A DNA stretch of 64,000 nt from Sanderia malayensis (lineage: Eukaryota; Cnidaria; Scyphozoa; Semaeostomeae; Pelagiidae), in contig RQOL01000374.1 in the NCBI GenBank assembly GCA_013076295.1, positions 5,446,743-5,510,742 on the forward strand. Direction: 5' to 3'. Numbering within the stretch: position 1 is the first letter of the stretch; every line of letters begins with the position of its first letter. The position numbers and the translations under genes are program-made. The notes below the pieces were generated by a model. That model saw only the letters and a list, made by a program, of their open reading frames with translations, was not told the DNA's origin and made no database searches. This document shows, piece by piece, positions 31,743 through 38,205 of this stretch.

Positions 31743-32930
31743 TTATTTCTCACTGTAGCACTTCCCAACTGCCTCATCTGCCATAAGATCATTGTTCATC
31801 TCGCAAAAATTATGCGAAACAAAGCAGCTATATATGACGTTTGGCAGATCGGAAATATTAATGTCCATCTCCCTTCGTAAAGCACCAAATCTCGCTTTCA
31901 TGCGACCAAATGAACATTCAATAGCCATTCTTGCAGAGGACAGCTTGTACGAAAATAGTTGCTCCTCAACATTACGTCCACCAGATGGATATTCTTTCAT
32001 AGCATAAGGAAGCAGAGGGTAAGCTGGATCTCCCAATAAACACACAGGTACTTCTGGGTAATCTTCCACGATTGACTTGTAACACTTTGGTATTTCACCA
32101 TTTCGAAGCTGATTATTAATTGATGAATTTGTGAAGATGCGTGCATCATGAACAGGGCCTGGCCATTTTATAACAACATCCATGAAACAATACTTAAAGT
32201 CACAAGTTGCCTGGATGTTCAATGAATACCTGCTTTTTCAATTGATAAAATCTGTTGGATTTTTAGCTGGTTGCTTTATGAAAACATGGGTTCCATCTAC
32301 TGCACCAAGACACTGTGGAAAACCATGCTTTTCATAAAACGTTGTTGTTAGGAATTCAACTTCTTCTACTGTTTTTGGAAGCTTGATATATTTTGGACCA
32401 AGCTCTTTTGTTATTATATAACACATTCTTCTTACTGTCTGGGAGACTGCTGCCCTTGACACTCCAAAGGCATTAGCAACCTTTCTATATCGACCTTCAT
32501 CTGACAAATAGTATAAGGTAATGGCTACTTGCTTTTCCACACTAATCGGCAATCTCATGTTTGTGATCTGCTTTCTTAAATATGGTTCAACTTGGTCACA
32601 AAGTTTATAAAAGTTTTCTCGAGACATCCTGAAATTTTCTCTACACCCTTCACGGACAACAATATCATTGACAAAATTGTCCCACCATCAACTTGTTCTT
32701 CCCGGTCTGACCTAAAATTTCCTCGCTGCAGGTTTTCTAACCTTCCTTTCAAGACTTGCAAAGACACTTCGTGCTGACTTTGGTCTTGTTCTTCTGTTGA
32801 TTACATTCAGCAAGCGGCTTTGTCTGTTTTTATGGATGCTGCAAAGCTGCAACATTGTCTGATACAATGACTGAACTTGCATCAAAAGCAAAACAAACAC
32901 TAAACTGAGTTTATTTTCCAACATTTTCAT
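31743..32930 (-). pseudogene. Harbinger transposase with three stops
   Basis: From an ATG at 32930 one frame gives a basic N-terminus (RLLNVINRRTRPKSARSVF). TAG (32712-32714) and TGA (32688-32690) stops interrupt it before [19 protein letters not shown]. The helix-turn-helix [20 protein letters not shown] and the first Asp in LGAVDGTHV follow. A TGA at 32238-32240 interrupts before the second Asp ([10 protein letters not shown]) and the Glu ([16 protein letters not shown]). All three catalytic residues are retained, so the decay is limited to single-codon stops. It cannot be made as one protein in this copy. Confidence 0.8.
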
Positions 32931-33411: not shown

Positions 33412-33417
33412 TTTGTG
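33412..33417 (+). repeat. Target duplication TTTGTG, left copy
   Basis: TTTGTG abuts the TATGGTGGCC end of the IS3EU-like element. The matching copy is at 38200-38205. Confidence 0.9.
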
Positions 33418-33777
33418 TATGGTGGCCCAGGACTGCCATTGGTTTTTTTCTTGGTAGAATCTATAATTTTTAACTTTATTTTTATTTTTTCTATTTTATA
33501 TATAATTTTATTTATTTTTACTTCATTTTTATTTCAATTTTCCATTTTTTTAATTTTCAACAGTTTCAATTTTTATCTGAAGAAATTTTCTAATTAATTT
33601 CATTTTTTATTCTGCTAATTTCATTTTGAATTCTTTTTTAATTCTATTATCTCTTTTAATTCTATTATCTAGAATTTTTTCAGTTCGTTTAAAAAAAAAA
33701 CAAAAAAAGACAAAAAATGTTTTCGAAGAAGAAATTTTTTCAACCGCGAGCCCAGGATTGCCATAGTATACCACAAT
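33418..33777 (+). repeat. Left long terminal inverted repeat
   Basis: 360 bp, extremely T-rich over ~33460-33680 on the plus strand. It ends with a second copy of the tip-like phrase CCCAGGATTGCCATAGTATA, so each inverted repeat has related sequence at both its outer and inner borders. Confidence 0.9.
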
Positions 33778-33821
33778 ATACCTTGTTTCCCTGTAAACCA
33801 CGAGAAAAGTTCTTTTCCAAA

Positions 33822-36141
33822 ATGGCGTACTGCAGGAATGCTTCGTGGCGAGAAGATGAATCCCTCAAGCGAGACTTAACAGAATATAGCAGGCAGGGTA
33901 TGCAAAGGAACGAGATGCTAAGTTTTGTTTCAAATGATTATAGTCAGTATGCTTGGAGCCTCAGGACATTAGACAGAAGACTGCGCGAGTTTGGTATCTA
34001 TCGCACGGACAAGAATGTTTCCCTGGAAACTTTAAGGAATGCTCTTATTGAAGAGCTAGATGGTCCAGGCAAACTCCTTGGTTATCGAGCGATGGCAAAT
34101 AAGTTACGACAAGAGCATCATTTAAAGGTTCCAAGAAAACTTGTGCACGATATGATGTACGATGTTGACCCAGAAGGACTTGCACAGCGCGCCTTAGACC
34201 AAAGAAATAATCCAAGAGTGAAGGGAAAATTTACAACACGTGGACCTAATTGGGTCCACTCTTTGGATGGACACGCTAAATTAATGGGCTTCCAAAAGAG
34301 CACATTTCCACTTGCCATATATGGCTGCATTGACACAGCCAGTCGGAAACTGCTTTTTTTGAAAATTGGTTCTGGTAACTCTGACCCACGAGTGATAGGT
34401 CTTTGGTACCTTGAATATCTTTACGAAACAAAGTCAATTTCTTCTATGATAAGAATAGACAAGGGAACAGAGACAGGCATTATGGCCACGATGCATGCAT
34501 TTCTTCGTAGAGATGACAACGACATGGATCCTCTTGACACAGTGATATATGGCAAGTCAACCTCCAATCAGGTAAAGATAGTTGATGACCTAAAGCATTA
34601 ATCAGTGCCATAGTAGCCGTGGGTCCGTTGAAAATTGAAAAGTTTGTATGTGATCCGATCCAGACTTGGCCATTTGAGGCAGATGGTCACCCTGCTCCAC
34701 CCTAATGCCCTCCTCTTTAATCAAATTTTAAGGTAAGGAAATTGCCCGCCTCAATTTCACTAAAGAATAGCCTAACTGACATCAATGATGAGGGCTATCT
34801 ACTGCCCACCTGCTAAAATTCTCATAGCCAGGTCTGATTTGACCGCAGTTACACAAAGAGTTATAGATTGAAACTCGCACCACATATCAGCCCTACTCGC
34901 ACCTCGCAGGTCAAAATTGTCCCAAATCAATAACAAATTAAGAAATTTACACAATACCATGCAAATTTTTATATTTGAAAGATTGAAAGATGGTGGCGGG
35001 AGCTCCACGAACGCTTGGAGATCTATTATAAGCAAAAGTTGTCCTATCTAAAAGATCAAGGATACTACCACCCTGATGATGATCTGCATAGGTACTGTAT
35101 CTATTAAATATTGCTAATAATGGGCAAAATTAGGGGAAAGATCGCTATATACCTATAATAACTTACTGTTGCTAGTCTTCGCATTTTGGACAAAAACAGT
35201 TTCTATTGTTGATGTTTGTTGTTATGCAATTAAACATTGGAAATTTCGGTGTGGCCTCTGAATCGTGGCTACTTTTCCAAGCGATTACCGGGTACATCAA
35301 AATAAACTATGCACCTTTGACAGGCCATGACAGGCCATGAGAAGCTATAGTGAAATTTGTACATATTATGTCCCATGCATGGTGCATTTTAGATACTTAC
35401 TGGCATATCTATTCATCCCAATGATCCAAAAAGACTTGGATACATTCAGAAACTCTGTTTGGAATACACATAGGATCAGAAAACAGAAGAACACATTGTT
35501 GCCAGATGGTATTCCCAACCATATTTATGCTTTTCCAGGAGAATATGGTCTAACAGATTGCTGTGAGTATCCATAATTTGCTCTTTATATGTTGACTTTT
35601 ACATCTTTACAAAACAGTAAAAATTAATTCCTGCACAAAATTTGTTTTGTCCAAATTAGTTCCCGCAGAATTTGTGAGAAATTTGTCTGTGAGAGTTGGT
35701 GAAATTTCTATGAATAATCAGTTCCAAAAAAATTTTCATTTAAGGTAGCTTAGAACTTAGAATTGATAACTTAGAACTTAATATTCTAAGAAAAATTAAT
35801 TCCTATTTTTCCGTGAAATTTGGCAAAAATTAAATCTGCATAAAAAGTTCCCACAGTATCCAGTTACATATTTTTAGCTTAGTGGCAGGCCAAAACCTTG
35901 TCTAGTTTTCTAGAGATTGTCTAGTTTTCTAGATTTTGTTTGTTGTCCAGCATGGCAGATAAATGATGATCAGCTGAAAGAAGCAGCAGAACAGTCTGGT
36001 TTGCTTGATTTCAATGACAATTATATTCCTGATGAAGTTAGCCTGAGATGTCAACAGCTGGTGCCTCAACCACAAGATGTGAAACCAAGGGATTGTGTTG
36101 ATGCTTTTTTGTATCTCAAGGCTAATTATAACAATCTGTAA
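33822..36141 (+). CDS. IS3EU-like DDE transposase, four exons, intact
   Basis: I predict exons 33822-34571, 34982-35091, 35393-35562 and 35951-36141, all with GT…AG introns (donors GTAAAG, GTACTG, GTGAGT). Their sum is 1,221 nt, giving 406 residues with frame kept at each joint. The N-terminus has helical DNA-binding-like segments (MLSFVSNDYSQYAWSLRTL, LLGYRAMANKLRQEHHLKV). The catalytic core is integrase-like: D149 in HSLDGHAKL, D213 in IRIDKGTETG, and E252 in IERWWREL just after the first intron, 38 residues apart. A longer open frame starts at 33717 inside the inverted repeat, but the ATG at 33822 lies just outside it and is preferred. It converges on the alpha-kinase gene. Confidence 0.82.
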
Positions 36142-36417
36142 AGATTACTGTATAGCATCCATGCAGTCAGATAATGCTAAGACTACACATTCAGAAACAA
36201 TTGTTCGTATTAAATTTTATGATATCCTTTGTAAAATCTGATTAAATATGATTAAAAGGCTATGAGGTGGACACAAATTAATTTATTATAGCCATAAACT
36301 GCAATTTTAACAAGTTTAAACAAAACAGAAAACAGTATGATATAGTCGGTAAATATCCATTTTATTACATTATATGATTATATGAGACTATGAAAGTATC
36401 AAGTTTTTCTATGTATC

Positions 36418-37839
36418 TTAAACTGAATGTGTTATTGCTGTCAATCCAATAAGAGTGCAAAACCTATTGCACACATGTTGCTCAATAAAAACATCAATTG
36501 CTTGCACTGACAGATTTCCAGCGCCAAAAAGAAACTCTTCATTTGCCACCAAATTAGCTGATGCGATTTCGGGATCGAACAATGTGTACACACTCCCTTG
36601 TATGTCCAGAAGCATCAATCGATGTTCAGATTTTTCATAAGAGAAGTGAACTAAGCATTCAGCCTTTTGACTTACTTCACTTTGGTTACCACTGCACAGT
36701 GATCCGTTGTTGTTGATATACTTCTCAAAACAACCATCAATGAACTTCTCTATGGTTACGAACTCTCCACTTTCCATTTTGCCCATGATGCTTTCTGTGT
36801 AAACAAACACCTTGCCAAACTCATTCTTGCAACACTCTTCAACTCTGGCTTGAAGACATCCTGCAAAATGCTTTGCCAATGCTTGCATTTGCACAGTCTT
36901 CTTGGTGTGCTGTTCCATGGTCTGTTTCAATTGGGTGATGCAATCAACTGTACTTTGAAGGTACTTTTTGACAACCCAGGTAACATTTTCATATCCCTCT
37001 GTTGCACTAGTAGCTTTGAATACCTCACGAAACCCACCATTTGCAAAAGGTTTCTCATCTATTAGGAATTCTACTGCCTCTGTCAGTGAAGACCATGTCA
37101 TGGTTTCCAAATTGAACTTATACATATTTATTTTGGTTGTTGTTTGCTTCACTTCTTTTCCAAGATTCATCATTTGTGTAATTGAAAGGCTCTTTGGGAA
37201 GACCTTTGGCACCTTGCAAACTGGAACTTGAACTGAACTTGCATCAATTTTGGATCTTTCCTCACTTTCTCCTCTTCTTTTTTTCGTTGGTATAAAAGAA
37301 CTTATGCCTGAATCCAAATCTTCCAAGAAGTTCTTCTCAGACTCAACTATTTTTGTATTATACCTCCTACTTTGGTCAAAGGAATTATCAAGAAGTCTGA
37401 CATGTATAAGTTTCAAATTTGGTACCTGCTCTAAGTTATTACAAGAAGGTCCTTGTTCGCCTGCCAGCACATCGCACGAAACACGTCTATTAAGTCTGGG
37501 TGCAAAATGTGCCTCACAGGACTTTTTGATCCCTTCAAGGGTCAAATCGCCATGAGGATACGGCACGAATTCGCGAGGGCCTATCCTCGAAAACTTTTGG
37601 GCTTTACCAGAAACACTGGCACTCAAACGCTGGATCGTAAGCTGCTCTACTTTTACCTTTTCTGCTGGCTCTTTCTTCTTCCGATTGACGTTTATTTCTC
37701 GCTTGGCCTTCACCTTTTGCTCGAAATTTTTCCACTTCTGCTCCATGGCGGCGGAATAGGCCTTTATTGCAACTGTCCTATTGTCACTTGTGACGGCGAG
37801 GAAGCGTGTGTAGTTGTTGTGGTTGTGTGGTGTTTCCAT
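36418..37839 (-). CDS. Alpha-kinase domain protein carried by the transposon
   Basis: This is an intact 473-residue single-exon frame. Residues ~245-470 form an alpha-kinase, the atypical Ser/Thr kinase fold of eEF2K and TRPM7. The glycine loop is FANGGFREVF (265-274), and the ATP lysine is in WVVKKYL (K291 or K292). Later motifs are VYTESIMG, KFIDGCFEKYINNNG (365-379), CLVHFSYEKSEHRLMLLDIQG with H398 and D412, and FDPEI. GAGNLSVQAIDVFIEQHVCN ends the domain with zinc ligands H455, C457 and C461. The N-terminal ~240 residues are basic, lack a recognised domain and hold a nuclear-signal-like KKRR. All key residues seem present. It lies entirely inside the inverted repeats, tail to tail with the transposase. 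Confidence 0.83.
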   Translation of the reverse strand: METPHNHNNYTRFLAVTSDNRTVAIKAYSAAMEQKWKNFEQKVKAKREINVNRKKKEPAEKVKVEQLTIQRLSASVSGKAQKFSRIGPREFVPYPHGDLTLEGIKKSCEAHFAPRLNRRVSCDVLAGEQGPSCNNLEQVPNLKLIHVRLLDNSFDQSRRYNTKIVESEKNFLEDLDSGISSFIPTKKRRGESEERSKIDASSVQVPVCKVPKVFPKSLSITQMMNLGKEVKQTTTKINMYKFNLETMTWSSLTEAVEFLIDEKPFANGGFREVFKATSATEGYENVTWVVKKYLQSTVDCITQLKQTMEQHTKKTVQMQALAKHFAGCLQARVEECCKNEFGKVFVYTESIMGKMESGEFVTIEKFIDGCFEKYINNNGSLCSGNQSEVSQKAECLVHFSYEKSEHRLMLLDIQGSVYTLFDPEIASANLVANEEFLFGAGNLSVQAIDVFIEQHVCNRFCTLIGLTAITHSV

Positions 37840-37880
37840 ATTATTTTCCCGCGCTTTTACCCAAAATCAATGCGCAATGC

Positions 37881-38199
37881 ATTGTGGTATACTATGGCAA
37901 TCCTGGGCTTGCGGTTGAAAAAATTTCTTCTTCGAAAACATTTTTTGTCTTTTTTTGTTTTTTTTTAAACGAATTGAAAAAAATTCTAGATAATGGAATT
38001 AAAAAAGATAATAGAATTAAAAAAGAACTCAAAATGAAATTAGCAGAATAAAAAATGAAATTAATTAAAAAATTTCTTCAAATAAAAATTGAAACTGTTG
38101 AAAATTAAAAAAATGGAATAAAGTAGAAAAAATAAAAATAAAGTTAAAAATTATAGATTCTACTAAGAAAAAAACCAATGGCAGTCCTGGGCCACCATA
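37881..38199 (-). repeat. Right long terminal inverted repeat
   Basis: 319 bp, the inverted partner of 33418-33777. It is shorter by about 40 bp in the T-rich part. It ends …GGCCACCATA next to TTTGTG at 38200-38205. Confidence 0.9.
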
Positions 38200-38205
38200 T
38201 TTGTG

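What the first reader, a model, noticed from the sequence alone, without database searches (positions are those of the whole stretch)
33412..38205. IS3EU-like transposon carrying an intact alpha-kinase
Seen: TTTGTG duplication, ~320-360-bp inverted repeats, an intact four-exon integrase-type transposase, and an intact 473-residue protein with the alpha-kinase glycine loop, lysine, KYINNNG, DIQG and H-C-C zinc motifs, all inside the ends. Known: alpha-kinases (eEF2K, TRPM7, VWKA) are host regulators. Inferred: the element captured a kinase, possibly to regulate the transposase, translation or the cell cycle during transposition.
Basis: partly seen in the sequence, partly recalled or inferred. 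Interest (0 to 1): 0.88.

Follow-up and report, generated by a model that had tools for sequence, protein, structure and literature searches.

The report
Jumping gene with inherited alpha-kinase
This is an intact "jumping gene" that carries, besides its cutting enzyme, a protein kinase which its close relatives in the same genome also carry and have kept intact for a long time; the pairing is already in print for fungi, but it probably explains a set of wrongly named kinase genes in corals and jellyfish.

Summary

It is an IS3EU transposon, but "this element captured a kinase" needs changing. In the same genome, 10 of 10 transposase loci with uninterrupted exon 1 (at least 230 residues, at least 40% identity) have the kinase downstream in the same convergent layout. 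Of 75 close loci, 46 have it on the opposite strand, none on the same strand; of 48 distant loci, 1. Kinase and transposase divergence correlate over ten elements (r 0.66; 1 of 20,000 permutations), and element kinases separate from seven host kinases (97/95). So the kinase is old in this lineage; its catalytic residues are nearly invariant.

The pairing is in print for fungal IS3EU (PMC12730594). Not found in my paper searches: its retention in an animal lineage, the co-divergence, inner copies of the terminal motif near both gene starts, a link to cnidarian genes misnamed TRPM6-like. Most likely the kinase regulates transposition; substrate unknown.

The parts
33412..33417 (.). target site duplication TTTGTG, left
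33418..33777 (+). left terminal inverted repeat, 360 bp, begins TATGGTGGCCCAGGACTGCCAT
33749..33764 (+). inner direct copy of the terminal motif (AGCCCAGGATTGCCAT), 2 mismatches of 16
   Evidence: 0 of 1000 shuffles as good
33822..34571 (+). transposase exon 1 (D149 at 34266-34268, D213 at 34458-34460); an in-frame ATG also lies upstream at 33717
34982..35091 (+). transposase exon 2 (E252)
35393..35562 (+). transposase exon 3
35951..36141 (+). transposase exon 4 with stop codon
36418..37839 (-). alpha-kinase ORF, 473 aa; conserved start probably Met32 at 37744-37746
37387..37644 (-). conserved N-terminal module of the kinase protein, about residues 66-151, no Pfam or PDB sequence match
37894..37909 (-). 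inner copy of the terminal motif at the right end
   Evidence: 0 of 1000 shuffles as good
37881..38199 (-). right terminal inverted repeat, 319 bp
38200..38205 (.). target site duplication TTTGTG, right

Best explanation
A complete two-gene IS3EU cut-and-paste transposon. Transposase and alpha-kinase start close inside the two inverted repeats and run towards each other, with 276 bp between their stop codons. Shown: the kinase is an old, recurring part of these elements in this genome, keeps its catalytic and zinc residues, and has diverged together with the transposase. Inferred: the similar repeats give both genes similar promoters, so that they are expressed together; the transposase binds the outer and inner copies of the terminal motif; the kinase, perhaps addressed by its conserved N-terminal module, phosphorylates the transposase or a host factor at the element to time or permit transposition. 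I put identity and old association at about 0.9, and this regulatory mechanism at about 0.4. The confidence given here is for identity, old association and selection, not for the substrate.
For: Anatomy. Association: 10 of 10 uninterrupted close transposase loci have the kinase; 46 of 75 close loci opposite strand, 0 same strand, 4 upstream; 1 of 48 distant loci. Co-divergence r 0.66, 1 of 20,000 (ten elements, five of them with only the C-terminal part of the kinase). Constraint: third codon positions differ at 0.56-0.69 and second at 0.18-0.46 in pairs other than the near-copies L014/L016; K291 kept in 93 of 95, E364 95 of 95, H398 94 of 94, D412 94 of 94, D422 93 of 94, H455 91 of 93, C457 90 of 93, C461 89 of 93 rows with a letter. 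Recent movement of kinase-bearing copies: three copies 99.7% identical at different places. Other species: neighbours Seg1936.5 and Seg1936.6; four shared contig lengths against 0.011 expected.
Against: 29 of 75 close transposase loci and 40 of 86 kinase loci lack the partner within 6 kb in these lists; at least 3 of the 29 do hold kinase fragments that the list missed. Recent copies L014/L016 show no clear constraint. The recently multiplied family (L037, L056-L058) has Phe at the last zinc cysteine, seen in L037, so full zinc binding may not be needed. No expression, activity or substrate data. The rows of the conservation count are 94 of the 120 listed relatives; I left out rows that were mostly shorter or had altered ends, such as P0042 and P0087, which lack the zinc end.
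Confidence: 0.85

Rival explanations
1. The kinase is a host-directed effector: it phosphorylates chromatin, silencing, repair or cell-cycle proteins so that the element escapes silencing or moves at a favourable time, rather than acting on the transposase.
For: Conserved active site. By analogy, fungal elements carry TET/JBP dioxygenases thought to counter silencing (PMC12730594, passages), and cleaved TRPM6/7 kinases enter the nucleus and phosphorylate histones (PMC13143021, passage).
Against: No substrate, localisation or expression data.
Confidence: 0.35
2. Recent capture of a host alpha-kinase by this element or its near relatives.
For: The kinase ORF has no intron, whereas the host eEF2K-like gene of this genome is hit in several pieces.
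Against: Co-divergence, kinase in elements as different as 29-37% in kinase identity, separate branch from host kinases.
Confidence: 0.03
3. A host kinase gene family beside which transposases happen to insert.
For: 40 of 86 kinase loci have no transposase hit nearby in the lists.
Against: Orientation is 46 opposite to 0 same; in the complete elements examined the kinase lies inside TIRs and duplications; copies 99.7% identical begin and end at the termini or within a few bases of them.
Confidence: 0.02
4. The kinase acts on translation as eEF2K does, lowering elongation during transposition.
Against: TRPM7 and MHCK-A align as well or better; no other Pfam domain over its cut-off; the branch is separate from eEF2K.
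Confidence: 0.07

Closest known systems
TET+ IS3EU elements of rust and truffle fungi (PMC12730594, passages and section 25 seen)
   Same: IS3EU transposase and alpha-kinase in opposite orientation, 6-bp duplications, TAYGG..CCRTA ends, TIRs over 30 bp.
   Different: Here there is no third gene between the two (276 bp between the stop codons); long 319-360-bp TIRs; animal host (inferred).
IS3EU/GingerRoot in general (PMC10045372, passages)
   Same: TA..TA termini, 6-bp duplications, DDD/E transposase related to IS3/IS481.
   Different: The passages seen do not mention a kinase.
Host alpha-kinases TRPM7, eEF2K, MHCK-A, ALPK1
   Same: Fold, and the catalytic and zinc positions where aligned.
   Different: 21-26% identity in structure alignment; separate branch for those in the tree (TRPM7, eEF2K, MHCK-A); no other Pfam domain over its cut-off in this protein.
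Cnidarian kinase-only 'TRPM6-like' genes (PMC13143021, passages)
   Same: Named Dendronephthya and Paramuricea 'TRPM6-like' proteins are among the relatives of this kinase.
   Different: That paper treats them as misannotations; the term 'transpos' does not occur in its text. Whether its sequences are the same ones was not checked.
Styx of Zymoseptoria (PMC10853768, passages)
   Same: IS3EU-type transposase with accessory genes.
   Different: Accessory genes are GATA, CCHC and DUF3577 proteins; the one mention of a kinase is of a neighbouring host gene.

Membership tests
IS3EU superfamily | DDD/E integrase-type transposase | tested here: met
   rva_4 integrase core E 3.5e-25; D149, D213, E252
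IS3EU superfamily | TA..TA termini | tested here: met
   TATGG...CCATA; feature from PMC10045372
IS3EU superfamily | usually 6-bp target site duplication | tested here: met
   TTTGTG here; L038, L039, L040, L057, L058 6 bp, L056 5 bp
IS3EU superfamily | transposase groups with Repbase IS3EU in a tree | not testable with these tools
   no Repbase sequences on hand
fungal TET+ IS3EU | transposase and alpha-kinase in opposite orientation | tested here: met
   feature from PMC12730594
fungal TET+ IS3EU | TET/JBP gene between transposase and kinase | tested here: not met
   276 bp between the two stop codons
alpha-kinase family | Alpha_kinase domain (PF02816) | tested here: met
   E 9.3e-34, whole profile 1-185
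alpha-kinase family | alpha-kinase fold with catalytic Lys/Asp and His-His-Cys-Cys zinc residues | tested here: met
alpha-kinase family | kinase activity | not testable with these tools
   needs an assay
TRPM6/7 channel-kinases | TRPM channel domains in the same protein | tested here: not met
   no other Pfam domain over its cut-off in the 473 aa

The most novel reading that the evidence does not exclude
An alpha-kinase with a module of its own (no Pfam name, predicted strand-strand-helix-strand-strand core) is the ancestral second gene of IS3EU, inherited since before animals and fungi split, and is needed for transposition; 'alpha-kinase expansions' in rust fungi and 'TRPM6-like' genes in cnidarians are then largely transposon genes.
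Probability: 0.4. Interest if true: 0.72.

Novelty: new member of a known kind. Interest (0 to 1): 0.5.

Why it matters
[quoted passage not shown] A retained kinase with a conserved active site suggests that phosphorylation is part of this element's life cycle, which can be tested directly. It also offers a simple account of kinase-only proteins named TRPM6-like, eEF2K or vwkA-like in cnidarian annotation, and possibly of the alpha-kinase expansion reported in rusts (PMC4469406, passage).

Tried and rejected
Considered and rejected: recent capture, and a host kinase family beside which transposases insert (see rivals). Distant rva_4 loci (under 40% identity) as a kinase-free branch: L051-L054 (4 of 48) gave no kinase hit and no inverted repeats enclosing the transposase hit; I did not search the terminal motif there, and do not count them as kinase-free IS3EU. 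Of the 29 close transposase loci without a listed kinase, 6 were extended by about 3 kb with no kinase hit (L009, L013, L015, L021, L032, L033); none showed a matching right end. L032 has an end-like motif, but it does not match its left end and there is no duplication. L003 has a left end and a kinase but no transposase or right end in the stretch held. Viral contigs: 6 stretches matched a pattern, none a relative of the kinase. The EukProt pair gene2289/gene2290 (transposase 99%, kinase 96%) is not independent: P0003 of a like-named set is identical over 401 aa to a locus of this genome, so it is probably the same or a very near species. The N-terminal module could not be searched by fold; the list tests model residues 231-473 only. 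By sequence it had no Pfam match at E 1 and no PDB match at E 10; one member had a below-cut-off Pfam match (Tox-MPTase3, E 0.0071) over residues 41-88, taken as chance.
Full report
Observation. The element lies at 33418-38199, flanked by TTTGTG at 33412-33417 and 38200-38205. Its inverted repeats are 360 and 319 bp long. On the plus strand the transposase has four exons with GT/AG borders and 406 codons without a stop, Pfam integrase core E 3.5e-25, and D149, D213, E252 with 63 and 38 residues between. On the minus strand lies one uninterrupted alpha-kinase ORF. Joining the flanks in a script puts the insertion two codons before the end of a 209-codon open frame without a Pfam match over its cut-off.

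Part of the element or a passenger? In the 184-Mb genome, transposase exon 1 gives 137 matches and the kinase 99; both searches score only the best candidates, so these are lower bounds. After merging neighbouring pieces there are 123 transposase and 86 kinase loci. Of 75 transposase loci at 40% identity or more, 46 have a kinase within 6 kb downstream on the opposite strand, none on the same strand, and 4 have one upstream; of 48 loci under 40%, one has it downstream and one upstream. Ten rows are uninterrupted over at least 230 query residues at 40% identity or more: 10 of 10 have the kinase, and in 8 of the 10 the kinase match is near full length without a stop; C824 has two stops and C571 matches residues 219-470 only. 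Against this, 29 of 75 transposase loci and 40 of 86 kinase loci stand alone in these lists. At least 3 of the 29 (L018, L035, L036) do have kinase fragments; 6 of the 29 were extended, and none showed a matching right end; the rest were not extended.

Anatomy recurs: L037-L040, the first four extended relatives, have long TIRs and a convergent kinase; L038, L039 and L040 have both ends and perfect 6-bp duplications, while L037 lacks about 31 bases of one end. Three further copies (L056-L058) are 99.7% identical in different contigs, with duplications of 5, 6 and 6 bp, so this family moved recently; they lack the transposase core (about residues 110-249 of the 406, including D149 and D213), while the kinase frame stays open. 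L037, 99.8% identical over 3.1 kb, has the core.

Age and selection. Pairwise distances of the two proteins correlate over ten elements (r 0.66, 1 of 20,000 permutations); for five of the ten only the C-terminal part of the kinase lay in the stretch held. Kinases of this genome are down to 29% identical, with third codon positions near saturation and second positions conserved; the near-copies L014/L016 show no clear constraint, as expected for recent transposon copies. In an alignment of the window kinase and 94 relatives the catalytic and zinc positions are nearly invariant. In a small tree (110 columns) 22 element-type kinases lie on one side of a 97/95 branch and seven host kinases on the other. 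The 22 include database proteins (among them Ciona, Phallusia and Clytia) that I call element-type by sequence alone, without having seen a transposase beside them, and the degraded L063 and L064. The seven are TRPM7, eEF2K and MHCK-A from the PDB and four pieces of this genome (L059-L062). The long TRPM7 and L064 branches make their places unsure.

Other species. Relatives are named TRPM6-like, vwkA-like, alpha-protein kinase 1-like or eEF2K in Dendronephthya, Paramuricea and Exaiptasia. Kinase P0079 and transposase P0225 bear neighbouring gene names (Seg1936.5 and Seg1936.6; that the prefix stands for Aurelia is my recall). Four contig lengths (64267, 85488, 196530, 3130359) occur in both lists, against 0.011 expected when lengths are jittered by up to 2%.

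Two further features. First, residues about 66-151 form a conserved module (GKAQK, REFV, CDVLAGEQGPSC) with confidently predicted strands and one helix, and no Pfam or PDB sequence match; its topology looks beta-grasp-like to me, but no fold search of it was possible. It is present in the Ciona and Phallusia proteins, in weaker form. Second, both ends of five families (10 of 10 ends tested) hold an inner direct copy of the terminal motif 205-332 bases in, with 2 to 4 mismatches of 16; 0 to 3 of 1000 base shuffles are as good. In the window it lies about 55-60 bases from both annotated starts.

What is known. PMC12730594 (passages and section 25) states that all TET+ IS3EU families of fungi hold transposase and alpha-kinase in opposite orientations, so the pairing is in print. 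PMC10045372 (passages) gives the IS3EU termini and duplication length. PMC13143021 (passages) notes cnidarian TRPM6-like sequences with only the kinase. PMC4469406 (passages) calls the alpha-kinase family highly expanded in rusts; its table row shows 79 and 39 in two columns, whose headings I did not see. PMC5295586 (passage) lists the alpha-kinase family in a table of wheat-rust protein comparisons. PMC10853768 (passages) describes Styx, derived from IS3EU. PMC3520738 (passage) reports a 2012 talk suggesting that host-derived proteins in transposons regulate transposition. I found no paper on an animal IS3EU alpha-kinase in searches (of one search only 12 of 12,108 hits were listed); Repbase entries and most subscription papers are outside that library, so an earlier record there is quite possible.

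Mechanism. Best guess: transposase and kinase are expressed together, and the kinase acts on the transposase or on factors at the element. The conserved active site suggests that phosphotransfer matters; nothing here shows on what.

Noticed in passing
33749-33764 and 37894-37909; also L038, L039, L040, L056: Each TIR holds an inner direct copy of the terminal motif, which varies partly along with the outer copy from family to family: candidate second transposase-binding site near both gene starts.
   Followed up: yes
L056, L057, L058 and similar kinases on C836, C726, C573, C403: A recently multiplied family with the transposase core deleted in the three copies read, but an open kinase frame in all seven.
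   Followed up: partly
L037 (same family as L056-L058): The last zinc cysteine of the kinase is phenylalanine (HVCNIYF), although this family multiplied recently.
   Followed up: no
protein P0007: A database protein of 482 aa joins a stretch like the transposase N-terminus (residues 39-82 of the 441-aa form, 48%) to a full kinase: a fusion or a wrong gene model.
   Followed up: no
L051-L054 and other rva_4 loci under 40% identity: A distant group of integrase-core genes, several with single open frames above 400 aa, 1 of 48 with a kinase nearby; four looked at had no enclosing inverted repeats. Another element group or host genes.
   Followed up: partly
G000:C686, 3387224-3405638: Three element copies with transposase and kinase at a constant spacing of 7640 bases: a tandem array or an assembly effect.
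   Followed up: no
window 32403-32687, minus strand: 95-aa open stretch resembling the HTH of a DDE transposase (HTH_Tnp_4, E 0.0013, below the cut-off): probably a remnant of another transposon.
   Followed up: no
L053: 2426-2470 and 4580-4624: Short inverted repeats with the same 8 bases (TATCTTTG) on the outer sides: looks like an unrelated small element.
   Followed up: no
rust fungi, literature: The reported alpha-kinase expansion in rusts (PMC4469406) and the alpha-kinase in rust IS3EU (PMC12730594) may be the same genes; not tested here.
   Followed up: no
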